From IMG/VR virus record IMGVR_UViG_3300046500_000125, positions 1-21,245 of that record: a stretch of 21,245 bases of DNA; one strand, 5' to 3'. This stretch comes from a virus. Positions 2,497 to 21,245 of this stretch are shown here, piece after piece; position 1 is the stretch's first letter, and every line of letters starts with the position of its first letter. A program made the translations under genes and the position numbers. The notes under the pieces are model-generated. The model did not search any database, was not told where the DNA came from, and saw nothing but the letters and a program-made list of their open reading frames with translations.

Positions 2497-2927
2497 CCGT
2501 TCACGCTATCCCATCCGATGCGACGTCGCGCGGCCAGGCCGTTGCCGACCGCATCCGCGCTGAGGGTTTTGAACAAGGCAAGCAGGAACGCTTCGCCGAA
2601 GTCACAGCAACGCACGTCAGCGAGATTGGCCGCATCGGCCAGGCGCATTCAACCGAGATAGCGAAAGCAGAACACCGAGCAGAGGCTCATGGTTTTTGGC
2701 GCGGCTCGGCGCTCGCGCTGCTGGTTGGCCTCGCTATCGGCGGCATGGGTGCATACAGCGCTGTGCAGTCGGGTATGTTCGGACTTGTCGCCGCTGATCG
2801 TGCGCGTCATGATCGATGGAGCCCGCCGCTCGGCCCGATCGACAGCGGCGTTGTGGATCAGCCGGCGGGCTACGACCACAATCCAAGCAATGGCCGTCCG
2901 CTGCATGAGCCGGCGGATGCGCCGTAA
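2493..2927 (+). CDS. Single-pass membrane protein of unknown function
   Basis: This 144-residue protein starts at GTG 2493, coupled to the upstream gene. Residues 10-66 form a charged, helix-rich cytoplasmic-type region. Residues about 69-92 (WRGSALALLVGLAIGGMGAY) are a clear transmembrane helix with small residues and Gly packing motifs. The last 50 residues are polar and proline-rich (PPLGPIDSG, GYDHNPSNGRPLHEPADAP). There is no lipobox or cleavable signal. Phage proteins of this shape include spanin subunits, holin-associated factors and membrane-anchored virion proteins. No lysis enzyme is next to it in this window, so a lysis role is only possible, not shown. Confidence 0.65.
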   Translation: MTVHAIPSDATSRGQAVADRIRAEGFEQGKQERFAEVTATHVSEIGRIGQAHSTEIAKAEHRAEAHGFWRGSALALLVGLAIGGMGAYSAVQSGMFGLVAADRARHDRWSPPLGPIDSGVVDQPAGYDHNPSNGRPLHEPADAP

Positions 2928-2948
2928 AATACGGGCATTTACGGGATC

Positions 2949-3197
2949 ATGAGCGGGAATAGGGGAAAGGGCCGCCCTAAGGGCGTGCCAAACAAGACCA
3001 CAGCTGAAGTGAAGCGCGCCTTCGAGATGGCTTACGATCATCTGGGCGGGCAGGCCAATTTCAACAAGTGGGCCAAGACCAACCAGGATATTTTCTACAC
3101 GCAGCTTTTGCCTAAGTTAATTCCTGTGCAACTGAACCACGCTGACAATGAGGGCGGCAAGATTGTGTTCTCGTGGCAGACGGATACCAAAGGGTAG
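2949..3197 (+). CDS. Terminase small subunit-like DNA-binding protein
   Basis: The 82-residue product begins with a basic segment GKGRPKGVPNKTTAEVKRAFE. This is the GRPKG-x-x-N-K-T pattern of the phage family placed beside large terminases (DUF5681-like), with an AT-hook-like GRP core. It ends with FYTQLLPKLIPVQL, also typical of these proteins. Small terminases recognise the packaging site and regulate the large subunit. The product is shorter than classical small terminases (usually 140-180 residues), and a helix-turn-helix is not obvious, so the assignment rests on family resemblance and on the 25-base overlap with the large subunit gene. ATG 2949 follows a weak ACGGGA site. Confidence 0.72.
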   Translation: MSGNRGKGRPKGVPNKTTAEVKRAFEMAYDHLGGQANFNKWAKTNQDIFYTQLLPKLIPVQLNHADNEGGKIVFSWQTDTKG

Positions 3198-4471
3198 AGA
3201 TACCCTATCGGCCACGTGCGCCATTCAAGCCGTTCCATGAGCGCATACAGCGCTGGTCGAGCATGGTGGTGCATCGGCGCGGCGGAAAGACCGTCGCAAG
3301 CCTGAATGATCTACAGCGTGCGGCGTTGCGCAATGAGCGCACTTGGCCGCCGCCGCGTTACGCATACATCGCGCCATTCTATAATCAGGCGAAGCGGATC
3401 GCCTGGGGCTACGCCAAGCATTACGCGAATCCAGTGCCGGGGCGGCAGTTCAATGAGAGCGAGCTGAAGCTCACCTACCCGAATGGCGCTGAGCTTCGGT
3501 TATTTGGCGCTGACAACCCGGACAGCCTTCGCGGTGATTATCTCGATGGTGTGGTGCCGGATGAGTATGGCGATTGGGCTCCGACCGTGTGGCCGCTGAT
3601 TATTCGCCCGATGCTGTCGGATTACAAAGGATGGGCGGCCTTTATCGGCACGCCAAAGGGCAAGAACGCATTCTATCGTTTGCACAAGGAAGCCGAGGCT
3701 GATCCGGACAATTGGTTTTCAATGACGCTGCGGGCGAGCGAGAGCGGCATCATTCCATCAGACGAGCTTGATGACCTGCGACGTGGCATGTCTGACGATC
3801 AATATCGGCAGGAGTTTGAGTGCGATTTCGATGCGGCGATTCAGGGCGCTTATTACGCTCAATTGCTGCGCGAGGCCGAGCAGCAAGGGCGTATTTGCAA
3901 TGTGGCTCAAGATCCACTGATGCAGATCCGGGCCTATTTCGATATCGGCGGGCCAGGCAAAAAAGCCGACGCGATGACGATCATCATCTGCCAGTTTGTG
4001 GACCGCGAGATGCGCATTCTTGATGCGATTGAAGGCGTAGGCCAAGTGCTTGGCTATTATGTCAATGAGTTGCGCGCTCGCGGCTGGGGGAGGGCGTTAT
4101 GCGTTGTGCCGCACGATGCGGCGCAGACGCACGCTGATAACCCATACGGGATCGACTTCGAGGCCCAATTAAAGAGTGCCGGCTTTCAAACAAAGAAAGT
4201 GCATAGCCCGCCCGGCATTGTGATGCAGCGTATCCAGACGGCGCGGCGGTATTTTTCGCGGATATGGTTCAACAGGGCGACGACGCAGAATCTGCGCGAT
4301 GCGCTGCAGGGATATCATGAGCGCAAGCACAAAGAGACGGATGAAGGTCTTGGCCCGATGCACGATTGGGCCTCGCACTTCGCGGACGCGTTTGGCCTGA
4401 TGGCGATCGATTACGAAGAGCCACGCAAGCATATCGAGCACTTGCCGATGCCAGTTTTAGGGATGGTGTGA
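3173..4471 (+). CDS. Terminase large subunit (packaging ATPase-nuclease)
   Basis: This 432-residue protein drives DNA into the capsid with ATP and cuts genome ends. Walker A is VVHRRGGKT (32-40). Walker B is DGVVPDE (125-131) with catalytic Glu131, and the coupling motif is FIGTPKG (158-164). The RNase H-like nuclease half has acidic residues in AYFDIGG (Asp257), VVPHDA (Asp315) and HDWASHFADAF (Asp398, Asp405). Arg-rich HRRGGKT in place of GxxxxGKT is the common variant in large terminases. The start is GTG 3173, inside the small-subunit gene. The first residues are basic and aromatic as expected, although the region before Walker A (31 residues) is short. A long-range match to P22/SU10-type terminases is likely. 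Confidence 0.95.
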   Translation: MADGYQRVEIPYRPRAPFKPFHERIQRWSSMVVHRRGGKTVASLNDLQRAALRNERTWPPPRYAYIAPFYNQAKRIAWGYAKHYANPVPGRQFNESELKLTYPNGAELRLFGADNPDSLRGDYLDGVVPDEYGDWAPTVWPLIIRPMLSDYKGWAAFIGTPKGKNAFYRLHKEAEADPDNWFSMTLRASESGIIPSDELDDLRRGMSDDQYRQEFECDFDAAIQGAYYAQLLREAEQQGRICNVAQDPLMQIRAYFDIGGPGKKADAMTIIICQFVDREMRILDAIEGVGQVLGYYVNELRARGWGRALCVVPHDAAQTHADNPYGIDFEAQLKSAGFQTKKVHSPPGIVMQRIQTARRYFSRIWFNRATTQNLRDALQGYHERKHKETDEGLGPMHDWASHFADAFGLMAIDYEEPRKHIEHLPMPVLGMV

Positions 4472-5133: not shown

Positions 5134-5279
5134 ACTTCATCCTTGGCTTCTTCATGCCGTCGATTTGGCTCTTGAACACGTCGGCCGATGTGGATTCTGG
5201 CACACAAGACCCAGGTGGAGGCGCTGGCGGCGCGGGATCTCCGGTTGGGCTTCTTCTCATTTTGACGAGCGCGAGCTGA
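5130..5279 (+). CDS. 49-residue hypothetical protein with hydrophobic N-terminus
   Basis: The gene is coupled to the spike-base gene by ATGA at 5130-5133 and is followed after one base by the next ATG. Residues 1-16 (MNFILGFFMPSIWLLN) are strongly hydrophobic, the middle is a Gly/Asp-rich loop (DSGTQDPGGGAGGAGS) and the end is again hydrophobic (PVGLLLILTS). It may be a tiny membrane or virion protein. A chance frame is not excluded, but the exact tiling between two convincing genes and the absence of any alternative gene support it. No family is recognised. Confidence 0.55.
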   Translation: MNFILGFFMPSIWLLNTSADVDSGTQDPGGGAGGAGSPVGLLLILTSAS

Positions 5280-5280
5280 T

Positions 5281-5778
5281 ATGGCCGATAATGTAGACAT
5301 CACGCCCGGAACCGGAGCAACGGTGGCTGCCGACGAGATCGGCGGCGTTAAATATCAGCGTGTGAAGCTTTCACTTGGTGCGGATGGGACGGCGAATGAT
5401 GCGTCCGCTGGCGCTGGCGCGGTTGGAACTGGCACACAGCGTGTCACGTTGGCGAGCGATGATCCGCTTGTTGTCGGCGCAACGGGAAGCACGGAATACG
5501 AGACGGTTGCGGCATCGCAGACCGCTCAGGCGCTTGGCGCTACGGGAGCGGCAGGCGATCTAGTTTCCGGTCTTTTGGTGATTCCAGCGACGACAAGCCC
5601 CGGCGCTGTGGCGCTTTTGGATGATGCGACATCGATAACGGTTTTTGCAGGCGGCGCGTTGAGCGTGGGCGACTTAAAGCCGTTTTTCATCCCACTCGGG
5701 CTTAAGAGCGTGTCTGGCGCATGGAAGGTGACGACTGGCGCGAATGTTTCGGTGATCGGCATGGGTAATTTCACCTGA
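5281..5778 (+). CDS. Virion protein with the 'GGVKYQRVKL' domain (head or tail fibre type)
   Basis: The 165-residue product opens with a segment (VDITPGTGATVAADEIGG, then KYQRVKLSLGADGTA) that is widespread at the N-terminus of small phage structural proteins and fibre-like proteins of proteobacterial phages. The rest alternates beta strands with Ala/Gly/Thr-rich loops and ends VTTGANVSVIGMGNFT. No charge clusters, signal or catalytic motif are present. It likely decorates the capsid or forms a short fibre; its place between the spike-base protein and the portal agrees with this. ATG 5281 starts one base after the preceding stop, and its TGA overlaps the portal ATG. Confidence 0.75.
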   Translation: MADNVDITPGTGATVAADEIGGVKYQRVKLSLGADGTANDASAGAGAVGTGTQRVTLASDDPLVVGATGSTEYETVAASQTAQALGATGAAGDLVSGLLVIPATTSPGAVALLDDATSITVFAGGALSVGDLKPFFIPLGLKSVSGAWKVTTGANVSVIGMGNFT

Positions 5779-8057
5779 TGGCGTATGGCGTAGCTGAGCA
5801 GTCCGCGGGAAAACCAGAAGCCGCCGAAAAGCTCATCTATGGCGACGACGACTTTCTCGCCATGGTCCGCGCCGAGCGTCAGAATGCAATCGGTCTCGAC
5901 AATGGTGATGAGCTGATTGATGATCGTGAACGCGCCCTGAATTATTACAAGGGCGACATGAGCGAGATCCCGGTCGCAGCCAATCGCTCCAAAGCTGTTC
6001 ATACTACCGTCAGCGACATGGTTTGGCAGGCGATGCCTGACCTTGTGGAAATCTTCCTTGGCGGCGAGGACATAGGCGCTTTCAAGCCGATCGGCGAAGA
6101 AGACGAAGAGGGCGCAAAGCAGGAAACCGCGGTCGTCAACAATGTTATAACCAATGACAATGACGGCTTCGGCCTGATCCATGATTACGTGCATGACGCG
6201 CTGCTGATGAAGGCTGGGGTTTTCCATGCCTGGATCGAACGTAAAGAGGCCTACGAAGAAGAGACGCTGCAAAACCAACATGCCTTAGCTGTGCAGCAAT
6301 TGCAGCAGCAAGAACAGGCTGGCGCGGTCAAGATTTTGAGCGTCGAGCAGAGTGGCGAAGACCCGCTGCTTGGTCCGATCTTCACCGTGACGATTGAGCG
6401 TGGACGCAAGAATGTGTGTGTGCAGATCGAGAACATCGCTCCCGAAGACTTCGCCTATGCGCGTGACACGGTGCGGCTCAGCAAATCCACTTATAGTGTC
6501 GCCCGTAAGCGTCCGCGCGCTCAGGAGCTGAAGTGGACCGGTTTCGATCCTGATTTGGTTGATGAACTGCCGGGCTGGAATGGCGCGGCGCAGATGCAAA
6601 TCGATACGGCGCGCGATACCGTGGGCGAAAGCGATCAGCCAATGCTTTCGGGCAGCCCGACGCACGATCTGCGTCAGGTCCTGATTTACGTGCATGTGTT
6701 GCGCGTCGATGCAGACGGCGACGGTGATCCCGAAATCTGGCGCATCATCACCGACGAGCGCGAGACGGTGCTGCTTGACAAGGAAAAACTAGAGGCCGTG
6801 CCGTTTGCGCTTGGCACGCCATTTCGTCAGCCGCATCGCGCGATTGGCCGCTCCCTCGCGGATCTGTCGATTGAGCTGCAGAAGATCATGACGGCGCTTC
6901 TGCGCTTGCATCTCGATGGCGGCTTTTTCTCGATTAACTCGCGCCATGAAATCAACATAGACAAGGTGACCGAGCACACGCTGCAGGATTATCTCAATAA
7001 CTCGCCCGGCTATCCGGTGAGGTCGCGCGGCGACGCGCTGGCGCCGTTGGTGAGCACCAAGAATGATTTTAACGCGCTTGAGTCGCTGGAATATATGGCG
7101 ACGGTTGGCGAGACGCGAACCGGTATTACGCGCAATGCGCAGGGGTTAAATCCTGACACGCTGCACGATACGGCCAAAGGCGCTCAGGCGCTGATGACCA
7201 ATGCGCAAAAGCGTCTCCGGCTGATCGCGCGCACGCTTGCAGAGACCGGTATTCGCGACCTTTTCCTGCTGGTGCATTCATTGCTTCGGACATCCGGCAT
7301 GGATCAACCGATGGCGCAACGCTTGCGCAATAAATGGGTGCAAGTCGATCCCACCAAATGGGGCGAGCGCAAGGATTTCACGGTTGAAATCGGCATGGGC
7401 GCCGGTGGCCGCGAGATGAACATGCAGCTTGCCGGCATGATCGGCGGTCTGATGGACAAAATCGTGGAAGGCCAGGCCACCGGCGCGATCAGCCCGCCTG
7501 TCGTGACGGCGAAGAACGTGTTCTCCTTCGCCGATTGGTTGAAAGAGCAGGCCGGCGTTAAGAAGACGACCTTCTTCACCGATCCGGAGAGTGAAGAGGG
7601 CCAACAGCTTGCGCAAGCGGCGGCGCAGCCGAAGCCAGATCCGAAAATGCTTGAGGTACAAGTTAAAGCGAAACTCGCTCAACAGCAGCAGGCGCATACG
7701 GAAGAAATCGGCAGGCGTGAACAAGACCGCAAGGATGCGGAGGCGGCGCAGACGCTGCAGCGCAAGAATCAGGAAGCCGCTTTGGCGGACAAGCTGGCAA
7801 ACGACAAAGCTCTCGCTGAGGCGGCCTTGGCGCACGGCAAGGCGGAGGCTGAAAAGCAGCTCGCTATCGACAAGCAAAACACAGAATACCAGCTCGCGAT
7901 CAGGCAGCAGGACTTAGAGTTTCAGCTAAAAGAGCGGCAAATCGAGCATGATCGCGAGATCGGCCATGCCAATGCGCAAGCCAAGATCGATATCGCTCAA
8001 AGCAAGGGCGACGAATCTTTGCCCTCCAATCGTCCAGGCGGCTCACTGAGTGAGTAG
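5778..8057 (+). CDS. Portal protein
   Basis: This 759-residue protein is a large podoviral portal. It carries the conserved ANRSKAVHTTVSDMVWQAMPDL block (about 68-89), a helical DALLMKAGVFHAWIE segment near 147-161, and the central wing region. A stem/clip region contains RQPHRAIGRSLADLSIELQKIMTALLR, whose repeated 'G-R-S' and helix pattern is typical, and TGITRNAQGL around 449-458 is the usual post-stem motif. Residues about 620-745 form a long Gln/Ala/Lys-rich coiled coil, resembling the barrel or C-terminal extension of P22-like portals. Twelve copies form the DNA channel at one capsid vertex. The start ATG 5778 overlaps the previous stop as TGATG. Length is as expected for the P22/SU10-like group. 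Confidence 0.92.
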   Translation: MAYGVAEQSAGKPEAAEKLIYGDDDFLAMVRAERQNAIGLDNGDELIDDRERALNYYKGDMSEIPVAANRSKAVHTTVSDMVWQAMPDLVEIFLGGEDIGAFKPIGEEDEEGAKQETAVVNNVITNDNDGFGLIHDYVHDALLMKAGVFHAWIERKEAYEEETLQNQHALAVQQLQQQEQAGAVKILSVEQSGEDPLLGPIFTVTIERGRKNVCVQIENIAPEDFAYARDTVRLSKSTYSVARKRPRAQELKWTGFDPDLVDELPGWNGAAQMQIDTARDTVGESDQPMLSGSPTHDLRQVLIYVHVLRVDADGDGDPEIWRIITDERETVLLDKEKLEAVPFALGTPFRQPHRAIGRSLADLSIELQKIMTALLRLHLDGGFFSINSRHEINIDKVTEHTLQDYLNNSPGYPVRSRGDALAPLVSTKNDFNALESLEYMATVGETRTGITRNAQGLNPDTLHDTAKGAQALMTNAQKRLRLIARTLAETGIRDLFLLVHSLLRTSGMDQPMAQRLRNKWVQVDPTKWGERKDFTVEIGMGAGGREMNMQLAGMIGGLMDKIVEGQATGAISPPVVTAKNVFSFADWLKEQAGVKKTTFFTDPESEEGQQLAQAAAQPKPDPKMLEVQVKAKLAQQQQAHTEEIGRREQDRKDAEAAQTLQRKNQEAALADKLANDKALAEAALAHGKAEAEKQLAIDKQNTEYQLAIRQQDLEFQLKERQIEHDREIGHANAQAKIDIAQSKGDESLPSNRPGGSLSE

Positions 8058-8331: not shown

Positions 8332-9358
8332 GATTGCAGCGGCTGCGCCGTCCTTGTCGATCGACCAAATGGCGGCGGAATTTGATGCGGCGCCCAAAGT
8401 AAAAGACGAGGCCGTCGATGTTGCCGAGGACGCAGAAGAACAGGTTGAGACAGTTGATGGCGAGGCTGAAGAAGAACTAGAAGCCAGCGACTCCAGCGCC
8501 GAAGACGATGAAGGCGAGGCTGAAGAAGAAGAGACAGAAGAGCCCTCCGAGCCGGAAATCCCGCCGCCTGTTTCGTGGTCCAAGGAAGACGCTGCGACGT
8601 GGGCTGAGCTGACGCCCGCCGCGCGCGCTATTGTCGCACGGCGCGAAGCAGACCGCGACCGCGCCGTTGCGCAGGCCATGCAGAAGGCGAGCGAGGCCGG
8701 TAAGCAGGTCCAAACTGCCGCCGCGCAATTACAGGAATTCGCCAAGCTCGGCGCTGATGCGTTCGAGCAAAAATGGCAGGAGAAATCGCAAGGCCCGATC
8801 GATTGGGCCGCCGCGCTGCGCAATGCGCGCGATGATGCGGAATTTGACGCCATTACACGAAATAAAGCCCTGTACGATGCGGAGAAGGCCGAGGTGGAGC
8901 AGGCGAAAGCCGCTGCCGCCGAACGGGATGCCGAAGCGTTACAGGCTTTCAGAGCCGCCGAAGTGCAGAAACTTCCGGAGCTTGCACCCGAACTTTGCGA
9001 TCCGAAAACGGGTCTCAAGAGGGTGGAAGCCGTAGTGGAATTTCTGAGTACACGGGGCTTCGGGGACGTGATTGCGCGAGCAAGCGCGGTCGAACTCAGT
9101 ATTGCGAGCCTCGCTCTTGACGGCTTGAAGTACAGAGAGGCCCAAAGCGCTGCATCGAAGCAGGCCGCAATTCCTCGGAAAAATCCGACCTCACACGCCA
9201 AGCCGGTGCCCGGCGCGACTGGGCAAGGCGCAGCATCCCCACAACGCGTTCTTCAGGCGGTCAGTCAGCGCGCGACCAAAACAGGCGCCATCAGCGACAT
9301 GGTGGCGCTGTTTGACGCCGAGGACGCACAAAAAGCGAGAAAGGGCGTCCGTAGATGA
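8324..9358 (+). CDS. Head scaffolding protein
   Basis: This 344-residue protein has the composition of a scaffold. Residues about 27-78 are extremely acidic (Glu/Asp runs such as EAEEELEASDSSAEDDEGEA). This is followed by a proline spacer and SWSKEDAATWAELTPAARAIVARREADRDRA, a motif typical of podoviral scaffolds ('W-S-x-E-D-x-A-x-W-x-x-L-x-P-x-A-R'). A long Ala/Glu/Lys coiled-coil region comes next, and the C-terminal tail is basic (KARKGVRR). Such proteins guide capsid assembly and leave or are degraded before packaging. It lies between portal and major capsid genes and overlaps the capsid gene as ATGA. Confidence 0.85.
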   Translation: MSEIAAAAPSLSIDQMAAEFDAAPKVKDEAVDVAEDAEEQVETVDGEAEEELEASDSSAEDDEGEAEEEETEEPSEPEIPPPVSWSKEDAATWAELTPAARAIVARREADRDRAVAQAMQKASEAGKQVQTAAAQLQEFAKLGADAFEQKWQEKSQGPIDWAAALRNARDDAEFDAITRNKALYDAEKAEVEQAKAAAAERDAEALQAFRAAEVQKLPELAPELCDPKTGLKRVEAVVEFLSTRGFGDVIARASAVELSIASLALDGLKYREAQSAASKQAAIPRKNPTSHAKPVPGATGQGAASPQRVLQAVSQRATKTGAISDMVALFDAEDAQKARKGVRR

Positions 9359-10317
9359 CGGCTCCAACAAACACCGTAACCACGCTGGTCACGATTGGCC
9401 AGCGCGAGGATCTGAGAGATAAGATTTGGCGTGTCGCTCCTGAAGAGACGCCATTTTTGACGACCATCGGCAAGGGCGACGCTAACGCGCGCTATACGGA
9501 ATGGCAGACGGAAACGCTCGCCACGCCGGTCGCGACCAATGCGCAGCTTGAAGGCGACGATTACACGGCGGCGGCGGGCAATTTCACGACGCGGCTCGGT
9601 AATTTTTGCATGATCTCGGCGGCGGCATACACTGTGTCGCGCACTGCCGATAAAGTGCGGACTGCTGGCCGGCCGAACGAAACCAACCGCCTCAAGACCA
9701 TTCGTATGCTTGAAGTGCGGCGCGACCAGGAAATGCGTGCAATCGGCAATTACGCGTCAGTCAATGAATCTGGCGCCACGACCCGGAAATACGCTGGGGC
9801 TTTGGCGTGCTTGACTTCCAATGACAGCCGCGGCGCTGGCGGCTCTGACGGCGGTTTCTCGGCCGGCGTTGTCGCTGCGGCGACCAACGGCACGCAGCGC
9901 ACATTTACCGAAAGCCTCGTCAAAACCTGTATGTCGAATCTCTTCACGTCGCGCGGCATGGGCAAAAACAACTACATCGCTTTTATGGGCGGACCGCATA
10001 AGCAGCAGTTCAGCTCCTTCACCGGCATCGCTGCGATCCGCAAGGACGCGCCTGGCCGTGGGATGGCGAGCATCATCGGCGCAGCGGACACTTACACGTC
10101 CGACTTCGGCGAGATCACGTTGTTCCCGCACCCCTATGGCCTGACGCGAGACTGCTTCATCTGCGATCCCGATTATTGGGAATACGCATCGCTCGATGAG
10201 GCCGGGAACGAAGAGCTGGGCCGCACCGGCGACGCGCGCAAATGGCTGATCACTGTTGAGGGCTCGATTGTCTTCAAGAACGAAAAAGCTTCGGCTGTGA
10301 TCGCCGATTTGACCTGA
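9355..10317 (+). CDS. Major capsid protein, SU10-type HK97 fold
   Basis: This 320-residue protein matches the SU10 major capsid family (DUF5309). IGQREDLRDKIWRVAPEETPFLTTIGKGDAN is the conserved N-terminal segment. It is followed by YTEWQTETLATP, NAQLEGDDY, RLGNFCMISAAAYTVSRTADKV and AGRPNETNRLKTIRMLEVRRDQEMRAIGNYA. The C-terminal half has the KNNYIAFMGGPHKQQFS and FGEITLFPHP strands of the family and ends in EGSIVFKNEKASAVIADL. It self-assembles into the icosahedral or elongated shell around the scaffold. Length is normal for the family and no cleavage site is apparent. The start ATG 9355 overlaps the scaffold stop. Confidence 0.93.
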   Translation: MTAPTNTVTTLVTIGQREDLRDKIWRVAPEETPFLTTIGKGDANARYTEWQTETLATPVATNAQLEGDDYTAAAGNFTTRLGNFCMISAAAYTVSRTADKVRTAGRPNETNRLKTIRMLEVRRDQEMRAIGNYASVNESGATTRKYAGALACLTSNDSRGAGGSDGGFSAGVVAAATNGTQRTFTESLVKTCMSNLFTSRGMGKNNYIAFMGGPHKQQFSSFTGIAAIRKDAPGRGMASIIGAADTYTSDFGEITLFPHPYGLTRDCFICDPDYWEYASLDEAGNEELGRTGDARKWLITVEGSIVFKNEKASAVIADLT

Positions 10318-11332: not shown

Positions 11333-11959
11333 TTGGCCGCGATCTCAGATTACACGGCGCTCCAAGCGGCTGTGCTCAATTTCAACTGGAATCGCTCCAC
11401 AGGCACGGTCGATCATTTCTGCCGCCTTGCGCACACGCGCATTAATCTCGGTCTGCGTGTGCCGTTTATGCAGAAAACAGCCGATCTGACGATCAATGCG
11501 CAGCGTGTCGCGGCGCCGACTGACTTCGCGGCTGTGTCCCGGCTCTGGATCGATGACAGCTTCGACACGCCTTTGACGCCGGAGACCCCGGAGCGCATCG
11601 CGATGCTGAATGCGATGTATTCGACGAATCGCCCGGAATGGTTCGCGATCGAGGGAGAAAGCGACGATCTAGATTATTTTAGCTTTGCGCCGAACCCGGG
11701 CGCGACGACCTACACAGGCAAACTGCTTTACACTCGCCGGCTTGACTTCTTTGCGTCAGGCGCGGCGGCGAACCGTGTCTTGCGCGATTATCCAAACCTC
11801 TACCTTTACGGCGCGCTCGATGAGGCTGGCGCCTTCTCGGACGATCCGCGTTCTTACGGGCAGCGCTTCGAGGCGCTTCTGGCGCAGATCAATATGCAGG
11901 TGCGATCAGATGCTGTGGGCGGCGGCGCGATGCAGATGCTGACGCCGTACACGTTCTGA
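11333..11959 (+). CDS. Head-tail adaptor protein
   Basis: The 208-residue product fits the phage adaptor family known from SU10 and relatives. SDYTALQAAVLNFNWNRS is followed by VDHFCRLAHTRINLGLRVPFM ('Y-x-x-L...fi-lAe-rin-xLrv'), then strands ITINAQ-like and APTDFAAVSRLWID, and a helical C-terminus with NLYLYGALDEAGAFSDDPR and RFEALLAQIN. These proteins form a ring under the portal that links it to the nozzle. The start is TTG 11333, directly after the previous TAA; the binding site (GGGCGG) is weak, suggesting re-initiation by ribosomes finishing the gene before. Its TGA overlaps the nozzle ATG. Confidence 0.8.
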   Translation: MAAISDYTALQAAVLNFNWNRSTGTVDHFCRLAHTRINLGLRVPFMQKTADLTINAQRVAAPTDFAAVSRLWIDDSFDTPLTPETPERIAMLNAMYSTNRPEWFAIEGESDDLDYFSFAPNPGATTYTGKLLYTRRLDFFASGAAANRVLRDYPNLYLYGALDEAGAFSDDPRSYGQRFEALLAQINMQVRSDAVGGGAMQMLTPYTF

Positions 11960-13437
11960 TGTTTGTCAAAACCAATGTGCAGCCTGGTCTTTCCCGGCGC
12001 GGCACGCTCTATCAAACGATGGGCCGCTGGTATGACGGCGCCTATGTGCGCTGGTATGAGGGCTCGCTGTTTCCGATAGGCGCATGGGCGGCGCGTACGG
12101 CGACGCCCGTCACAGGCAAGCCTCGTGCGATCATGACGTTCCGCGACGATGACGGGACGCGGTTTGTGATCGTCGGGACAGAATCGAAGCTCTATGCGCT
12201 GACGCCATCTTTGACTGCGCTGGTGGATATCACGCCGGTTGGGTTCACAGCAGGCCACGCCGATGCCGCTGCCGGCGGCGGTTATGGCTCCAGTTTTTAC
12301 GGCACTGGCGCATACGGAACGCCGCGCATCGACTCAATCGGCATCGCTTACGAGGCGACGATGTGGCAGCTCGACATGTTCGGCGCCACGCCGGTGATGT
12401 TGGCCGCCGACGATGGCGTGATTTACTCCTGGGACAAGGACATCGGCACGCCGCACAAGGCGGCTGCGGTGTCGGGAGCGCCGACCGGCAATCAAGGCAT
12501 CGTGGTGACGCAAGAGGGCTTCCTGGTGGCCCTGGGGTCCGGCGGCGCGCGGCGCACGGTGGCATGGAGCGACCGCGGCAATCACACGACCTGGACGCCA
12601 TCGAGCACCAACCAGGCAGGCGATTACGATATTCAAAGCCAGGGCGGCTTGATGTGCGGGGCCAAGACGCGCACGCAGACCCTGCTCTTCACCGAGCTTG
12701 ATATCCATCTGATGAGCTATGTCGGCTTGCCGAATGTCTATTTGATCGACCGCGTGGGCGAAAATTGCGGCGCGATTTCGAGGAAGCCTGGTGCTGCCGT
12801 GGGCAGCAATTACACTTGGATGAGCCAGGACAATTTCTGGCAATGGGACGGCGCCAGCGCACAGCAGCTATCGTGCGATGTTTACGATGCCGTATTTAGC
12901 GACATGAACAAGGTTCAGCGCTCCAAAATTAGCTGCACACTGGTCAGTCAGTTTTCCGAGATTTGGTGGTTTTACCCAAGCGCCGCGTCGAACGAAAACG
13001 ACATGGCTGTGGTCTATAATTACAAGGAGCAGCATTGGAATTTGCACCCCTTATCGCGGCTCTGCGGCGCGGATCGCGGGATTTACAATTACCCGATCAT
13101 GTGCAGCTCTGACGGCTATCTCTATGATCACGAGAACGGGATTTCCTGGGATCAAACACCATTCGTGGAGAGCGGCCCACTCGAGAGCGACAATGGTGAC
13201 AGGATCATCAAGGTGCGTGACGTGATCATGGACGAGCGCACGGCTGGCGATGTGGAGCTTTATGTGAAGGCGCGCGAATGGAACAATGATTCCGATACGA
13301 CCTTTGGCCCATTTGTCGCACCCAATCCCGTCGATGGGCATTTTGCAGGCCGGGCCATGCGGATGCGTGTAGAGTTTCAGGGCGCCGGCCAATGGGGCGC
13401 ACCGCGTTTTGATGTGATTCCTGGGGGGCGCCGCTAA
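11959..13437 (+). CDS. Tail nozzle / DNA stabilization protein (P22 gp10-like)
   Basis: This 492-residue, beta-rich protein resembles the P22 gp10 / SU10 nozzle family. The N-terminus has PGLSRRGTLYQTMGRWYDGAYVRW, then FPIGAW. Repeated beta-propeller-like blades follow, such as PRAIMTFRDDDGTRFVIVGTESKLY, TMWQLDMFGATPVMLAADDG and FWQWDGASAQQLSCDV. The Trp/Tyr pattern at regular intervals fits a beta-propeller. It plugs and extends the tail after packaging and touches the tail fibre. The start is ATG 11959 (TGATG), and the stop overlaps the next gene as TAATG. Length fits the family. Confidence 0.82.
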   Translation: MFVKTNVQPGLSRRGTLYQTMGRWYDGAYVRWYEGSLFPIGAWAARTATPVTGKPRAIMTFRDDDGTRFVIVGTESKLYALTPSLTALVDITPVGFTAGHADAAAGGGYGSSFYGTGAYGTPRIDSIGIAYEATMWQLDMFGATPVMLAADDGVIYSWDKDIGTPHKAAAVSGAPTGNQGIVVTQEGFLVALGSGGARRTVAWSDRGNHTTWTPSSTNQAGDYDIQSQGGLMCGAKTRTQTLLFTELDIHLMSYVGLPNVYLIDRVGENCGAISRKPGAAVGSNYTWMSQDNFWQWDGASAQQLSCDVYDAVFSDMNKVQRSKISCTLVSQFSEIWWFYPSAASNENDMAVVYNYKEQHWNLHPLSRLCGADRGIYNYPIMCSSDGYLYDHENGISWDQTPFVESGPLESDNGDRIIKVRDVIMDERTAGDVELYVKAREWNNDSDTTFGPFVAPNPVDGHFAGRAMRMRVEFQGAGQWGAPRFDVIPGGRR

Positions 13438-14419: not shown

Positions 14420-15181
14420 ATGGGCGTTTCAGGAGGCGGGAAGGGCACTATTTTAGACCCGGCTGGCGCCTTTAGTGACCCGCCGACGCAAAAGACCAAT
14501 GTGAAAACTGTCTCGACGCCAAAGGTGCCGGCGCAGTTTTCAACGCCGACAAACAATCTGCTTGGTCAGATCAACGATCTGGCCAATCAACCGGTGCAGA
14601 TCACACCCGCCTCGCAGCTTCAGCAAAGCGCATTTTCTGCCGCTGGGGATATGACGCCGTTCGCATTAGGCGAGGCCGATCTCAGCAAATACATGAACCC
14701 ATATCAGCAGGACGTGATCGACTCGACGATTGCGGATTGGGGCCATGGCGTCGATGTGGGAGCCAATGCGATTAGCGCCGGGATGCCAACGGGGGCTTAT
14801 GGCGGCTCGCGCATGGGAGTGACGCTGGGTCAGTACGGCGCTGACAATGCGCGCACTTTGGCGGCGACGCTGTCCGGCCTCAACAGCAGCAATTTCAGCC
14901 AGGCGCAAGACGCCGCGAAGTTCGACGTGAACAACAACAACACGCAACTCGGGCTGCTCGGCACACTTGGCGAGCAGCAGCGCAAGGTCGATCTGGAGAG
15001 CAACCCGCAGGCTGCGCACATGCAGCAGATCAGCGATCTGCTCGCCATGATCAGCCAGGCCAATCCGGCGCTTTACACGACGCAAACCAGCAAGAGTAAA
15101 GGCGAGGGCACGGTTCCGGACACCGGTCAGGGCGCCGCGGCGGCGGGAACCGCCATTTCGGCGGCAGCGGCGATCTTCTGA
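14420..15181 (+). CDS. Ejection (internal virion) protein, YMNPY type
   Basis: This 253-residue protein has the diagnostic segment SKYMNPYQQDVIDSTIADW (89-107), then NAISAGMPTGAYGGSRMGVTLGQ (117-138). I associate this pair of motifs with virion or ejection proteins in phages of alpha- and gammaproteobacteria. The N-terminus is Gly/Thr-rich and polar, the middle is amphipathic helices with Asn/Gln repeats, and the end is Ala-rich (GQGAAAAGTAISAAAAIF), likely membrane-interacting. Together with the next virion genes it is probably packed in the head and injected with the DNA. ATG 14420 follows the previous stop by one base, and its TGA overlaps the reductase ATG. Confidence 0.78.
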   Translation: MGVSGGGKGTILDPAGAFSDPPTQKTNVKTVSTPKVPAQFSTPTNNLLGQINDLANQPVQITPASQLQQSAFSAAGDMTPFALGEADLSKYMNPYQQDVIDSTIADWGHGVDVGANAISAGMPTGAYGGSRMGVTLGQYGADNARTLAATLSGLNSSNFSQAQDAAKFDVNNNNTQLGLLGTLGEQQRKVDLESNPQAAHMQQISDLLAMISQANPALYTTQTSKSKGEGTVPDTGQGAAAAGTAISAAAAIF

Positions 15182-15888
15182 TGACAAAAGCGGCGCTGCA
15201 ATTCGGCGGCGGCAAAGACAGCCTTGCTTGCCTCTATCTCCTGCGTCCGCGTTGGGATGAAACTACGGTGGTTTGGCTCAACACTGGAGCCGCATTTCCC
15301 GAGACAATCGCGCAGATGAAAGAAATCGCGGCGATGGTCCCGCATTTCTTAGAGGTGCGCTCCGATGTGGCGGCGGATATTGGCGAGCATGGCTGGCCGG
15401 TCGATGTGGTCCCAGTCGCCCATACTGAATGGGGTATGAAATTCACAGGCCGGAAGGGGGTCAAGTTGCGGTCTTGGATCGAGTGCTGCGGTCGTAATTT
15501 TTGGGCGCCGCTCGAAGCCAAAATGAAAGAACATGGCTTCACGACGATCATTCGCGGCCAACGCAATGACGAGCATTACAAGGGGATCGTGCGGCATGGC
15601 GATGTGGTCGGCGGCGTGACCTATGAATTGCCGTTGCAGGATTGGACTGAATCTGACGTGTTTGCATTTCTGGAGCGCGAAGGCGTCGCCGTTCCGGCGC
15701 ATTATGAGGTGACGAAAAGCTCGCTCGATTGTTGGCTGTGCACGGCGTTTCTCGATGCGAAAAATCCTCAGATGGATTATTTGCGGGCCAAGCATCCTGA
15801 GCAGCACGCTTTGGTGCGTCACGCTCTTGATCAGATCGCCGGCGCGACGGCTGCTGCTCTGACTCCACTCGAAGCGGCAGTACGCTGA
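15181..15888 (+). CDS. PAPS reductase-family (PP-loop) enzyme
   Basis: This 235-residue enzyme begins almost at once with the PP-loop FGGGKDS (8-14), which binds the adenylate of APS/PAPS or ATP. ECCGRNFWAPL (101-111) carries Cys102 and Cys103, RGQRNDE lies at 125-131, PLQDWTESDVFAFL at 151-164 is typical of CysH/DndC-like proteins, and DCWLC (183-187) carries Cys184 and Cys187. The four cysteines could bind an iron-sulfur cluster, as in APS reductases. The family also includes enzymes that move sulfur to DNA or tRNA. It lies between ejection genes with TGATG overlaps on both sides, so it is expressed with virion proteins. The substrate is unknown; sulfur metabolism for the host or nucleic-acid modification are both possible. 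Confidence 0.88.
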   Translation: MTKAALQFGGGKDSLACLYLLRPRWDETTVVWLNTGAAFPETIAQMKEIAAMVPHFLEVRSDVAADIGEHGWPVDVVPVAHTEWGMKFTGRKGVKLRSWIECCGRNFWAPLEAKMKEHGFTTIIRGQRNDEHYKGIVRHGDVVGGVTYELPLQDWTESDVFAFLEREGVAVPAHYEVTKSSLDCWLCTAFLDAKNPQMDYLRAKHPEQHALVRHALDQIAGATAAALTPLEAAVR

Positions 15889-16445: not shown

Positions 16446-17140
16446 TGCCCGGCCTCTATGACGGCGCGACCGCAACAAATCCGCAGACGGGCGAGCGTGT
16501 CGTTTATCGCATTAGCCAAGGCGGTAAAGGACGTTGGCAGGCGCTGAGCGCAGATACGGCTGTGCCGGAAGCGCGTGAGCGGTTCACCAATCTCAACAAT
16601 ATGTCGCAGATGGGGGTGCGTACGCTGCGCAGCGCTCAGCGCTTTATCGACATCAATGCTAATGCCGATACCGGCGGCATCCAGAATGATCCAAACCTTC
16701 CTGAATTTATGCGTCCGCCAAATGCGCAAAGGCTGCAATCGCTCTCACGGCAAATGGTAGGGGCGAATTGGCAACCCGGCACATCCGGGATGTTCAACAC
16801 TGCGACAGAGCAGAATATGGCGGCGGGCCGCTATCCATCGCCTACAAATAAGGAAGAGGTGAATCGAGACCTGTATTTTCGTCAAGCCGAAGACGCTGTG
16901 ACGCAACAGCACGCCGTTGCAGATATGCGCAATTGGCTTTCACAGCATCCGACGCTCGATGGATGGGATGAGCATTGGTCGGCAATCGAACCGCGATTGC
17001 GCGCGCAAGTGCGCCGGGATTCGCAGCGCTATTATAGTCAGCGGCATGGTGGCGGACAGCCTCCAGCACCCCAGGCGGCGCCGGCACAAGGCGGCGGCGC
17101 CGCACTTCGCTACAATCCAGCGACTGGCCAGATCGAATAA
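16445..17140 (+). CDS. Ejection-cassette virion protein
   Basis: The 231-residue protein has a basic, tyrosine-containing N-terminus (MPGLYDGATATNPQTGERVVY, then GGKGRWQAL). A helical middle has the segments FTNLNNMSQMGVRTLRSA and FMRPPNAQRLQSLSRQM. Then come NWQPGTSGMFNTATEQN (109-125) and a helical stretch with VNRDLYFRQAEDAVTQQH. The W-Q-P-G-T-S-G-M-F-N phrase recurs in phage internal virion proteins near large ejection proteins, by my memory of the family. The C-terminus is Pro/Ala/Gly-rich and ends with YNPATGQIE. It is coupled to both neighbours by TAATG. It likely travels into the cell with the DNA. Confidence 0.73.
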   Translation: MPGLYDGATATNPQTGERVVYRISQGGKGRWQALSADTAVPEARERFTNLNNMSQMGVRTLRSAQRFIDINANADTGGIQNDPNLPEFMRPPNAQRLQSLSRQMVGANWQPGTSGMFNTATEQNMAAGRYPSPTNKEEVNRDLYFRQAEDAVTQQHAVADMRNWLSQHPTLDGWDEHWSAIEPRLRAQVRRDSQRYYSQRHGGGQPPAPQAAPAQGGGAALRYNPATGQIE

Positions 17141-20100
17141 TGCCCACGACAATTTTGGGTCCAGGCGGGGAGCAAGTCCAGTTTCCCGATGGAACCCCGC
17201 GTGCCGAAATGCAGCGTGCGATGCAGGCTCGCTTCGGTGGTCCGCAGCAACAGCGCGCTGCAACGCCGCCGGCTCCTCCACGTCGAGGCCAGTCGCGCCC
17301 ACTCGCCGATGAGATCATGCGGAGCGTCAGCACGACGCTCAGCGGCGCCATTCCATTCAACGAAGAGATTGGCTCTGCGGTCGTCGGCGCAGGCAATGCG
17401 ATGAGCGAGGGTATTCATGGCCGCAATCCAGTCGAGGGTTATCAACGCGGCTATCGCGGCGCTGTAGACAATGCGCGCGCTGATAATCGGGACTTCCGCG
17501 CCCGCCGCCCGATTGTTGCGGATCTGCTGACGGGAACGGGCGGGGCTTTGCCGATCTTGGCGACGGCTGGCGGCGGCGCCGCGCCATCGATCGCCAATGC
17601 CGCCGCGCAGGGTTCTCGCGGGCTTCCGTTGCTTCTGCGCCAGATGACGGAAGGCGCGGCAAACGGCGCGTTATGGTCGGGCCTCTTTGCAGCCGGCAAT
17701 GAAGATGGGGGCGATGTCTCGCAGCGCTTGCAGGCGGGTAATGAGGCCATGCCTGCGGGTGCTACGCTTGGCGCGGCTGCGCCGATCGCTGTCAATGGCT
17801 TCTCCGCGCTAGGCTCGCTCGCGTCTCGCGCTCTTCCGCGCCGTGGCGGGCCGCCGATGCGCAATGTGACGCCGCCGCCTGAAATGCCGCCAAGCGGTGG
17901 GGCGCCGGCCACGCAGATGGCTCGTGCGTCTGATGGCTCTGTGCTGCCTGTGCGCCCTGCCGAGCCGTTTCGGCAATCGCATGTCGGCGGGAGCGAAGAT
18001 TTGCGCGCTGCGGCGAGACCTCGGCCGCCGATGGACGACGCCGCACGTCTCGCGCAATTGCGTGAACAGGGCTTCAACGTCGATCAACCGCTTTTTCACG
18101 GCACGACCCGCGACTTCGAGAATTTCAGCGGCGACAATGGCAACATCTATCTGACGCATAAGCCTGAGCTTGCGAGCATGTATGCCGATGGCGAAGGCGG
18201 CAATGTGCGTCCTGTCTATGCGCGCAATGCTGAGCGTGTTTCTGAGAACAGCTTCATGGTGCGCAATCCGAGCGATGTGCAGCCGCGTTTTGGGTTGCCG
18301 CAGCAAACGCAAGGTGATGGCGCTCTTCCCCGCCGCCCGCTGCAGATGGGCGACAATGCGGGCCCGCAGCAGGGGCAGATGAGGGGGCAAGATAACCCCA
18401 TGATCAACGGTCGGAATAGCTACTTGGACGAGCCGCCGCCTGGACCAATCGCTGACTATGTGGGGCGATTAAAAGCAAGAGCAACGGGCCAAGAAGGTTA
18501 CGACATCCTCGCTCAATTGGCGAACGACAAGCAGATAGGCAAAGATACTCTGGAGGAGATCGCCGGTCGCTTTTTAGGCGCCCGTCTTCGCTTCAAAAAC
18601 AAAGCTGAGGCTGTAGCCGCCATCCATGAGCGAATTGGACGACGCGAATGGGACAAGTCAGCAATTAACTTAATGAACAACCCACCTTCGAAGCCGTGGG
18701 TCAAAAATGAGTCTGGCGGCGACCAACAGCAATCCTCCATCCCCCGCCAATATCCGCAGATGCCGGCAAAGCCGCAGCCGCAATTCGGCATGACCCTCGC
18801 TCCGCCGAACAACCAGTTCTACAGCAACCCGATCCCGTTCCCGCGCCGTACTGGTGGGCCGAAGCCGCCGCGTCCGCCGGCAGCGAGCGGGCCGCCGCGT
18901 CTGCCGGGTGATGTGGTTCGCACGGTCGATACGCTGGCCTCGCGCCGCCGCATGAGCGCAACCGATGTGGAGCGCGCAATTGGCGAAGCGCGCCAAAAGC
19001 CGCAGGGCCGTGTCTTGGCCGATCTGTTCGATGATCCAGGCGTGCGCACGCTGCGGTCGATTGCGCAGCGCCCTGGTGAGACTGGACAGCGGGCGACTGA
19101 GCGCGCATCGGAGCGCTTCCATGCGGCGCCGGTGCGTATCCTGCGTGATCTTGAGCGGAGAATGAGCGTGTCGCAGACGAGACAGGCGGCCATCGAAGCG
19201 CTCTCGAAGCAATACAAAGAGGTGAGCGCAAACCTCTATCGGCCAATCTTCGAACGTCAGACGACAACCGAGCAAAAACTCGCCATTGGCGCCGCTGTGG
19301 AGCGTATCGAGCGCGCACCGCTGACGCGCGGCGCAATTTCTCGCGCCAGATCGCTTTTTGCCACTGACCGTGAGCTTGGACTCGTGGAAGGCGGCATCAC
19401 AGATAATGCGGCGCGGTATGCCCACTATGTGAAGATGGCGTTGGACGACCTCATTTCGTCTCGTACGCGTACAGGTGGTCTGACGGGCAACGCTTTGCGT
19501 GCAAGCATGGAAGCGAAATCACAACTTCTGAATGCCATGGACGACACCATCCCAGGCTATCGTGATGCGCGCGCGCAATGGGGCGGCCTGAAGGAAGCGG
19601 AAGACGCGCTCGATGAAGGCGCTCATTTCCTCAGCATGTCCTCAGATGAGGTCCGCGCCGCCATGGGCGAGATGACGCCGTTTGCGCAATATCATGCGCG
19701 CATCGGCTTGGCGCATGAGCTGCATCAGCGGCTTGGCTTGCGCGGCTCGGTGAACGGTAATCGCAATGTGGCCGAGGTCTTGGGTTCGCCCGAGATGCAG
19801 GCCCGCGTGGCGGCGGCTTTCGATAGCCCAGACCAGGCGGTGCACTTCCTCGATACGCTCAACACGCAAAACCGCCTGATGCGCAATGCTGGGCAGTGGG
19901 GGACTGGGTCGCAGACCTATTCGAATCTCACGCATGGCGACGATCAGAATTCGCGCGCGCTCATGGAGGCCGGCGGCCACGCCGCGAGCGGCAATCCTAT
20001 TGCGGCGATCGGTCGCCTCGCCCGGCGCGGTGTTGACGCAGCCGTTGGCCATCGCCTGGAGCAATCGGATAATCGCGTGGGCGAGGCGTTGCTGCGCCCG

Positions 20101-20253
20101 ATCGATGAAGGCGCGAGCGCGAAAGAATTCACCGATCAAGTGATCGCGGAATTGCGCCGCCTTGAGACGATGCGGAACAGCAACACTCGCACCTCCCGCG
20201 TCGCCGCTTCCGCAGCGGGCGCACAGACCGGACGCAACAGGAAGCGGCCATGA
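17140..20253 (+). CDS. Large ejection protein with embedded ADP-ribosyltransferase-like domain
   Basis: This 1037-residue protein begins with a small widespread motif (TILGPGGEQVQFPDGTP, then EMQRAMQARFGG). Residues about 124-230 are Gly/Ala-rich hydrophobic segments, likely membrane-active, and a Pro-rich linker follows (233-262). Residues 302-375 read ARLAQLREQGFNVDQPLFHGT (His320 in HGT), YLTHKPELASMYAD, then NVRPVYARN and SENSFMVRNP. This matches the pattern of ART-PolyVal domains found in phage polyvalent proteins. A separate helical segment lies at 430-512, then a second Pro-rich linker, then about 430 residues of helical bundle with repeated Arg/Leu/Gln helices and a basic tail (TGRNRKRP). 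It is probably packed in the head and injected. Whether the ART part is active is uncertain. Confidence 0.85.
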   Translation: MPTTILGPGGEQVQFPDGTPRAEMQRAMQARFGGPQQQRAATPPAPPRRGQSRPLADEIMRSVSTTLSGAIPFNEEIGSAVVGAGNAMSEGIHGRNPVEGYQRGYRGAVDNARADNRDFRARRPIVADLLTGTGGALPILATAGGGAAPSIANAAAQGSRGLPLLLRQMTEGAANGALWSGLFAAGNEDGGDVSQRLQAGNEAMPAGATLGAAAPIAVNGFSALGSLASRALPRRGGPPMRNVTPPPEMPPSGGAPATQMARASDGSVLPVRPAEPFRQSHVGGSEDLRAAARPRPPMDDAARLAQLREQGFNVDQPLFHGTTRDFENFSGDNGNIYLTHKPELASMYADGEGGNVRPVYARNAERVSENSFMVRNPSDVQPRFGLPQQTQGDGALPRRPLQMGDNAGPQQGQMRGQDNPMINGRNSYLDEPPPGPIADYVGRLKARATGQEGYDILAQLANDKQIGKDTLEEIAGRFLGARLRFKNKAEAVAAIHERIGRREWDKSAINLMNNPPSKPWVKNESGGDQQQSSIPRQYPQMPAKPQPQFGMTLAPPNNQFYSNPIPFPRRTGGPKPPRPPAASGPPRLPGDVVRTVDTLASRRRMSATDVERAIGEARQKPQGRVLADLFDDPGVRTLRSIAQRPGETGQRATERASERFHAAPVRILRDLERRMSVSQTRQAAIEALSKQYKEVSANLYRPIFERQTTTEQKLAIGAAVERIERAPLTRGAISRARSLFATDRELGLVEGGITDNAARYAHYVKMALDDLISSRTRTGGLTGNALRASMEAKSQLLNAMDDTIPGYRDARAQWGGLKEAEDALDEGAHFLSMSSDEVRAAMGEMTPFAQYHARIGLAHELHQRLGLRGSVNGNRNVAEVLGSPEMQARVAAAFDSPDQAVHFLDTLNTQNRLMRNAGQWGTGSQTYSNLTHGDDQNSRALMEAGGHAASGNPIAAIGRLARRGVDAAVGHRLEQSDNRVGEALLRPIDEGASAKEFTDQVIAELRRLETMRNSNTRTSRVAASAAGAQTGRNRKRP

Positions 20254-20891
20254 GGGGCCCCTCGCTGCTCGACTATCTGCGCAATCCCCAGGCGCACCGC
20301 GACGTGCCCCGGATCGCCAATGCGCGGCCCACGCCGGGGCGGCCCATGTCGGCGGCCACGCTGCCCCGTAGGCGCGCACCTGAGCGTCAGCAGCCCATGG
20401 GGCCAACCGGCTATCTGTCACGCCTGGAGAACCCGCCAGCGCAGCCCGCGCCGGTGATGAGCTTTGCAGACGCCAACGGGCAAGATGCGCGTCCAATGCA
20501 AGACGAGCAGTTCGATCAATGGCAATCTCGGACGGGGCCGCATCAGACGCTTTCGCCGTTCGATGGCGGCGGCGATCAATTCGCGGACGCCCGCCCGATC
20601 CAGAATACACGCGATGCGAGCTATTACCGTGACCCGCAGACGGCGATGACGCAGACGGAGATCGGGCCGGCGAAGCTGCCGCCTGTGCCGGCTGCGATGG
20701 CCGACATACTCAATGCACAGCAGCAAGGACCGACTTGGGCTCAAGCAAGTCTGCTCGCACGGCAAGCCATGGCGCGGGAAAACCGCGTGCAGCGACCCGG
20801 TCTCTTCGCTCGCCTAGGCATACAGCCGCAAGGCGATCCCATGCTGGACGCGCTTAGGGCGCGCTCTCGGCCAATAACGCGGCCCGAGTAG
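20250..20891 (+). CDS. Proline-rich protein at the end of the ejection cassette
   Basis: The 213-residue protein starts with ATG 20250, overlapping the large ejection gene as ATGA, with AGGAAG before it. Residues 1-70 are Pro/Arg-rich (HRDVPRIANARPTPGRPM, then LPRRRAPERQQP) with short helical starts like GPSLLDYLRNP and TGYLSRLENPP. Residues 70-150 are polar loops with Asp/Gln. The last 60 residues form one helix-rich part ending LFARLGIQPQGDPMLDALR. It has no membrane segment or enzyme motif. By place and composition it is a virion accessory protein. Its 3' end overlaps the reverse-strand lipoprotein gene by 38 bases. Confidence 0.68.
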   Translation: MRGPSLLDYLRNPQAHRDVPRIANARPTPGRPMSAATLPRRRAPERQQPMGPTGYLSRLENPPAQPAPVMSFADANGQDARPMQDEQFDQWQSRTGPHQTLSPFDGGGDQFADARPIQNTRDASYYRDPQTAMTQTEIGPAKLPPVPAAMADILNAQQQGPTWAQASLLARQAMARENRVQRPGLFARLGIQPQGDPMLDALRARSRPITRPE

Positions 20892-21081
20892 CTCTGTAGT
20901 CGCAGGATCGCCCGGTTTCTTCGATGAACACTTCACCGCTTGAGAGCGTGAAGATTGCCCCCTCTTGGCCGGTGACTGAACATACATGCTGCGGATCTGC
21001 GATCTGTGGCCCGATGAGACGCGCCTGGGGCGCTGGCTGTGAACAGGCGGCAAGTAGCAACACGAAAAACAAGGATCGCAT
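20854..21081 (-). CDS. Small lipoprotein on the reverse strand
   Basis: This is the only supported minus-strand gene. The 75-residue product begins MRSLFFVLLLAACSQPAP, a classical type II signal peptide with lipobox L10-A-A-C13. The mature part has Cys34 and Cys60, which could pair in the periplasm, and it contains IFTLSSGEVFIEETG as two strands. An upstream in-frame start at 21141 would add 20 residues that spoil the signal peptide, so ATG 21081 is chosen. It fills the gap between the ejection cassette and tail fibre, where phages often carry reverse-strand accessory genes ('morons'). Possible roles are surface exclusion or an outer-membrane spanin; neither is shown. I see no convincing promoter upstream. 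Confidence 0.68.
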   Translation of the reverse strand: MRSLFFVLLLAACSQPAPQARLIGPQIADPQHVCSVTGQEGAIFTLSSGEVFIEETGRSCDYRATRAALLAESAP

Positions 21082-21117
21082 CAGCGCACCATGACACAGA
21101 TTGAGGCGGGGACATAG

Positions 21118-21245
21118 ATGGCTGACGGCACGACTACGCACTACAGCCTGACGAAGCCCGAGGTCGGGGCCTCAGCAGATACTTGGGGCGGGAAATTAAA
21201 TACCAATTTCGACACCATAGACACACAACTCTACGCGAAGCAGGC
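21118..21245 (+). CDS. Tail fibre protein, N-terminus (3' end outside window)
   Basis: The first 42 codons read [23 protein letters not shown], then [19 protein letters not shown]. The phrase 'T-x-x-Y-x-L-x-K-P-E-x-G-x-S-x-D-T-W-G-x-K-x-N-x-N-x-D-x-I-D' is the head-binding N-terminal motif of many phage tail fibres or spikes that attach to the nozzle. The start ATG 21118 follows a TAG by zero bases, with GAGGCGGGG at 21103-21111 as binding site. The receptor-binding part lies beyond the window. Confidence 0.85.

What the first reader, a model, noticed from the sequence alone, without database searches (positions are those of the whole stretch)
18043..18264. ADP-ribosyltransferase-like domain in a protein likely injected with the DNA
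Residues 302-375 of the large ejection protein keep the HGT start, the Y-L-T-x-x-P-E-x-A-x-x-Y helix and a final E-x-x-F-x-V-x-N-P strand of ART-PolyVal domains. If active, it would modify host targets at the first moment of infection, much as T4 Alt does. The domain is shorter than most, so it may also be a remnant.
Basis: partly seen in the sequence, partly recalled or inferred. Interest (0 to 1): 0.64.

Follow-up and report, generated by a model that had tools for sequence, protein, structure and literature searches.

The report
Shortened ADP-ribosyltransferase domain in phage protein
A protein that this short-tailed phage probably injects with its DNA carries a real but stripped-down piece of an ADP-ribosyltransferase, an enzyme type that phages are known to send into bacteria, and the piece has lost the parts that normally do the chemistry, so it is more likely an enzyme relic than an active weapon.

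Summary
Residues 297-384 of the 1037-aa protein (18028-18291) are homologous to ART-PolyVal domains at both ends. A profile built without the window scores 68.5 bits (best of 1000 shuffles 4.9). The last strand is the best-matching block anywhere in the protein (1 of 5000 shuffles).

The domain is the shortest of about 60 relatives measured. The helix and strand 5, which carries the family's Asp, are missing. The acid at the start of the last strand (E or D in 18 of 23 relatives) is Ser371. His320, Tyr337 and Tyr348 remain. The AlphaFold model still resembles ART folds, best the compact KptA/Tpt1.

The host protein is an ejection-type protein (phrog_5880) with a ~320-aa insert holding the domain. 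Six homologues lack it. Two sister phages instead carry separate ART genes beside or near the ejection gene; two of these are also short forms, and they keep the acid.

Injection is probable by gene position but not shown. ART activity "as in T4 Alt" is doubtful. Injected ARTs are already known (Iyer 2017), and a solved cyanophage pre-ejectosome protein has an ART-like domain. I call it a new variant of a known kind, probably catalytically dead or altered.

The parts
17140..20253 (+). Ejection-type protein, 1037 aa, carrying the ART-derived insert
   Evidence: phrog_5880 E 5.4e-34; homologues in L159/G051 and L118/G052
17140..17844 (+). N-terminal backbone of the ejection-type protein, residues 1-235
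   Evidence: residues 63-231 match phrog_5880 positions 54-210, E 2.9e-10; alignment with two ART-less homologues
17845..18807 (+). Insert of about 320 aa (residues 236-556) absent from the homologues; boundaries approximate
   Evidence: alignment with P0015 and P0013
18028..18291 (+). Shortened ART domain, residues 297-384
   Evidence: hold-out profile 68.5 bits; last-strand block; alignment A7; model
18097..18099 (+). His320 of the HGT motif (strand 1)
   Evidence: H in 23 of 23 aligned relatives
18148..18150 (+). Tyr337 (strand 2, NIYLT)
   Evidence: Y 17, F 5, H 1 of 23 relatives
18250..18252 (+). Ser371 at the acid column of the last strand
   Evidence: E 17, D 1, Q 3, H 1, S 1 in 23 relatives
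18808..20253 (+). C-terminal backbone of the ejection-type protein, residues 557-1037
   Evidence: 38% identity to P0015 over 557-1036, E 1.7e-71; phrog_5880 positions 240-655

Best explanation
The domain descends from an ART-PolyVal ADP-ribosyltransferase that came to lie in the middle of an ejection-type protein at the position of the last ejection gene of P22-like phages. It then shrank to the NAD-pocket half of the fold: strands 1-4, the Tyr helix and the last strand. It lost strand 5 with its Asp and the acid of the last strand. It most likely travels into the host with the DNA as part of that protein. It is probably no longer an efficient ADP-ribosyltransferase, and is kept as a folded spacer or weak nucleotide- or substrate-binding module, or is decaying. 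Shown: the homology, the shortening, the missing residues, the insert architecture. Inferred: packaging and injection, loss of activity, any residual role.
For: Homology at both ends. Shortest His-to-Pro distance of those measured, 57 against 68 and 73 for two short relatives and 89 or more for the others. Strand-5 column is a gap and the acid column is Ser371. Published active site of this ART group is His-Tyr-Asp (PMC5512222). ART-like model, best match KptA/Tpt1, Z 6.2, rmsd 2.7, 71 residues. Insert architecture against ART-less homologues. Sister phages keep ARTs as separate genes near the ejection gene.
Against: His320, both Tyr and a confident fold (pLDDT 82.7) are kept, which a freely decaying relic need not keep. 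Short forms P0011 and P0012 that also lack strand 5 persist in two phages and keep the acid, so shortness alone need not abolish activity. Glu369 could stand in. Only one sequence of this fused form is known, so selection could not be tested.
Confidence: 0.6

Rival explanations
1. It is a working minimal ART. The short core binds NAD through His320, Tyr337 and Tyr348, and uses another acid (Glu369) or a KptA-like mechanism to modify a host molecule at the start of infection.
For: Conserved His and Tyr; fold nearest to the compact KptA/Tpt1; short relatives with an acid at the column in two sister phages; phage ARTs near head genes are thought to be injected (PMC5512222, PMC9503650).
Against: Ser at the acid column and no strand 5; Pfam score under the cut-off; no measured activity.
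Confidence: 0.2
2. It is an ART-derived part with a purely structural or binding role in the virion or the ejection channel, under selection for that role rather than for catalysis.
For: It sits between two conserved halves of an ejection-type protein, folds confidently, and an ART-like domain occurs in the solved pre-ejectosome protein of cyanophage A4.
Against: Homologues do without it, so it is not needed for ejection in general; no second sequence shows conservation.
Confidence: 0.15
3. The resemblance is chance in a proline- and glutamine-rich linker, with no ART fold.
For: The Pfam score is under the curated cut-off.
Against: 68.5 bits in a hold-out profile against at most 4.9 in 1000 shuffles; last-strand block 1 in 5000; predicted fold.
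Confidence: 0.02

Closest known systems
ART-PolyVal (PF18760), ART domains of phage polyvalent proteins (Iyer et al. 2017, PMC5512222)
   Same: HGT and IYLT motifs, Tyr helix, PVY strand and final NP-D-V strand; carried in a protein likely injected with DNA
   Different: Lacks the helix and strand 5 with its Asp, Ser at the acid column, score under the Pfam cut-off, no second enzymatic domain found
Short ART genes P0011 (L118) and P0012 (L159)
   Same: Also lack strand 5; in phages whose phrog_5880 protein is the closest found to the window's
   Different: Stand-alone genes of 167 and 169 aa; keep Glu or Asp at the acid column; over the Pfam cut-off
Cyanophage A4 pre-ejectosome protein (PDB 9k3a chain B; A-4L ORF27)
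   Same: ART-like domain within an internal virion protein
   Different: Different phage group and carrier protein; longer domain, H1426 to P1593; no Pfam ART match
T4 Alt
   Same: A virion-borne ART injected with DNA, as proposed for this protein
   Different: R-S-E clade (PMC5512222); the window has His and Tyr instead
KptA/Tpt1 RNA 2'-phosphotransferase
   Same: Best fold match of the window model
   Different: No sequence relation shown; different family; its catalytic residues were not tested in the window

Membership tests
ART-PolyVal (PF18760) | Profile match over the curated cut-off and over most of the profile | tested here: not met
   24.5 and 29.0 bits against 31.2; positions 9-66 of 140
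ART-PolyVal (PF18760) | His in strand 1 | tested here: met
   His320, 23 of 23 relatives
ART-PolyVal (PF18760) | Tyr in strand 2 | tested here: met
   Tyr337
ART-PolyVal (PF18760) | Asp in strand 5 | tested here: not met
   Strand 5 absent from alignment and model
ART-PolyVal (PF18760) | ART fold | tested here: inconclusive
   Model matches ART folds, best Z 6.2, below 8
ART-PolyVal (PF18760) | ADP-ribosyl transfer from NAD | not testable with these tools
   Needs a biochemical assay
phrog_5880 ejection-type protein | Sequence match over both halves | tested here: met
   E 5.4e-34 for the C-terminal half, E 2.9e-10 for the N-terminal half
phrog_5880 ejection-type protein | Packaged in the virion and ejected | not testable with these tools
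   Position next to a DNA-ejection gene in L118 only
Polyvalent proteins | Two or more domains with disparate activities in one polypeptide | tested here: inconclusive
   Only the ART match in Pfam; residues 384-556 without a match in PHROGs
T4 Alt (R-S-E ART) | Arg-Ser-Glu active site | tested here: not met
   His320 and Tyr337 at the strand 1 and 2 positions; definition from PMC5512222

The most novel reading that the evidence does not exclude
A functional ART of about 85 residues, without strand 5 and the usual acid, built into the middle of an ejection protein and acting on the host during DNA entry; related stand-alone short ARTs in sister phages would be the same minimal class.
Probability: 0.15. 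Interest if true: 0.6.

Novelty: new variant of a known kind. Interest (0 to 1): 0.36.

Why it matters
Injected ARTs are a predicted but mostly untested early weapon of phages. Here the same domain type is a separate gene beside or near the ejection gene in two phages and part of the ejection protein in a third. That gives a natural series for asking how such effectors are loaded into virions and what the smallest working ART is. If the window domain is dead, it is an example of an effector turned into a structural part or decaying.

Tried and rejected
Close relatives of the whole protein: none in IMG/VR by peptide patterns (one search gave only the two distant phages) and none in the phage collection at E 1e-5. 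A loose search with the C-terminal part alone gave seven weak records.

Fifty related IMG/VR records found through the portal and stabilization proteins: one weak hit to the ejection protein and one PF18760 hit, in a separate gene. Prophage copies of the ejection protein: none in 398 genomes of the phylum of G071 (no positive control, so weak).

Frameshift hiding the missing strand: other frames show nothing. Foreign origin from base composition: GC3 of the ART segment (0.66) matches the rest of the gene (0.63-0.70), so no sign either way.

Homology of the window's C-terminal domain to proteome-confirmed phiM5 internal virion proteins: not found (E 0.16 and 0.59). PDB sequence search with P0001: nothing. 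The paper on cyanophage A4 is not held. In the length table the row L187 is a false end match, rows repeat for overlapping contigs, and some relatives could not be measured.

Full report
WHAT THE WINDOW IS. The window is one whole IMG/VR record of 21,245 bases, apparently a fragment of a short-tailed phage: large terminase 3173-4471, SU10-type portal 5778-8057, major head protein 9355-10317, stabilization-type protein 11959-13437, a PAPS-reductase-like gene 15181-15888, and the large gene of the finding at 17140-20253. Its nearest named relatives include phages of Rhizobium, Sulfitobacter, Octadecabacter and Microcystis.

OBSERVATION. The domain is a little longer than the coordinates given: residues 297-384, 18028-18291. 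Pfam's ART-PolyVal matches only positions 9-66 of 140 and stays under its cut-off. I collected relatives from IMG/VR with degenerate patterns, aligned 23 of them with the window, and searched the window protein with a profile that did not contain it: 68.5 bits, best of 1000 shuffled inserts 4.9. A separate score for the last-strand block finds its best place in the whole protein at 371-384, with 1 of 5000 shuffles as good. The homology therefore covers both ends of the domain. The stretch before HGT (MDDAARLAQLREQGFNVDQP) also matches the leader of relatives (DEASRMARAREMGFDVDTP).

WHAT IS MISSING. From His to the final Pro the window has 57 residues; F116 has 109, P0014 100, and two short relatives 68 and 73. 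The other measured relatives have 89 or more, apart from one false row. The alignment shows that the helix and the strand with the YDG motif are gone. The column of the acid that opens the last strand is E in 17 and D in 1 of 23 relatives, and Ser371 in the window. Iyer et al. give His (strand 1), Tyr (strand 2) and Asp (strand 5) as the active site of ARTs in polyvalent proteins, and Arg-Ser-Glu for T4 Alt (PMC5512222). I take strand 5 to be the YDG strand because it is the fifth strand of the control model; this is my reading, not a statement of the paper. On either reading the window lacks the acid.

STRUCTURE. AlphaFold2 gives the window domain mean pLDDT 82.7 and pTM 0.72, with strands at 318-322, 335-339, 355-361, 365-368, 371-374 and a helix at 342-348 (model numbers plus 289). 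The best solved folds are KptA/Tpt1 (Z 6.2, rmsd 2.7, 71 residues), then PARPs. The control, P0014 from L118, matches bacterial ART toxins and PARPs at Z up to 7.3, and also chain B of the cyanophage A4 pre-ejectosome (Z 6.6, 108 residues, chain residues 1418-1605). These Z values are below 8, where unrelated arrangements are possible, but the best-ranked rows of both lists are ART-superfamily proteins.

THE CARRIER PROTEIN. The protein matches phrog_5880 in two stretches: residues 63-231 to positions 54-210 and 611-1034 to positions 240-655. Between them lies an insert of about 320 residues. Two phages with the closest homologues, G051/L159 (38% identity, E 1.7e-71) and G052/L118 (E 7e-31), have proteins of 767 and 824 residues without it. 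Homologues in RHph_I1_23, MJing1, pCB2047-C and ctjLE16 have no ART either; the link to the last two is weak. In L118 the genes run: DNA-ejection (phrog_598, E 1.2e-13), a 484-aa protein, the phrog_5880 protein, three ART genes in a row (P0010, P0014, P0011), then a head-closure protein. In L159 a short ART gene (P0012) lies one gene before the head-closure gene, on the opposite strand to the ejection gene and about 6 kb from it. So in two sister phages the ARTs are separate genes of the virion cassette, and in the window one is inside the ejection-type protein. Packaging and injection follow from this position and from the published model; they were not shown.

HOW IT MOST LIKELY WORKS. The most likely reading is a derived, probably inactive or altered ART core carried into the cell as part of the ejection protein (0.6). 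The main rival is a working minimal ART (0.2), because His and Tyr are kept, the fold resembles KptA, and short forms with the acid still present exist. Target and timing are unknown in either case.

KNOWN OR NEW. ARTs injected with phage DNA are a known proposal (PMC5512222; PMC9503650). An ART-like domain in a solved pre-ejectosome (PDB 9k3a; A-4L ORF27) supports delivery in general; that 9k3a chain B is A-4L ORF27 is my inference from the numbering and motifs, and the paper (doi 10.1073/pnas.2423403122, cited in PMC12810830) is not held. What is new here is the place (an insert in a phrog_5880 protein), the extreme shortening, and the change from separate genes to a fused domain among related phages. 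I do not file the domain as a member of ART-PolyVal, since two defining features were tested and not met; it is related to it by descent. In function it may or may not work like one.

Noticed in passing
L118 (IMGVR_UViG_3300025896_000310) 5279-6971: Three ART-PolyVal-type genes in a row directly after the ejection-type gene and before a head-closure gene; the third is a short form.
   Followed up: partly
Anabaena phage A-4L ORF27, L243 20116-25269 (-), residues 1426-1593: ART motifs (YHGT, GTYFS, VDAL, LVINPDAV) in what appears to be the solved pre-ejectosome protein (PDB 9k3a), without a Pfam ART match.
   Followed up: partly
window 15181-15888 (+): PAPS-reductase-like gene inside the virion gene cassette; the same position in phage ctyzp037 (L013 12999-13688).
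   Followed up: no
window 18424-18730 (residues about 429-530): Second part of the insert, looks helical by eye; no match in Pfam or PHROGs.
   Followed up: no
L008 (phage ctOsX528) 5152-6390: Fusion of a transglycosylase (SLT) and an ART-PolyVal domain, 412 aa, after two large genes.
   Followed up: no
L012 (Octadecabacter Antarctic DB virus 2, gp6) 2752-4233: Protein with a stretch that looks ParB-like by eye and a weak ART-PolyVal match, in the gene cassette between terminase and tail tubular protein.
   Followed up: no
window 20854-21141 (-): Minus-strand ORF with a lipobox-like signal (LLLAACSQ); possibly a small lipoprotein, opposite to the virion genes.
   Followed up: no
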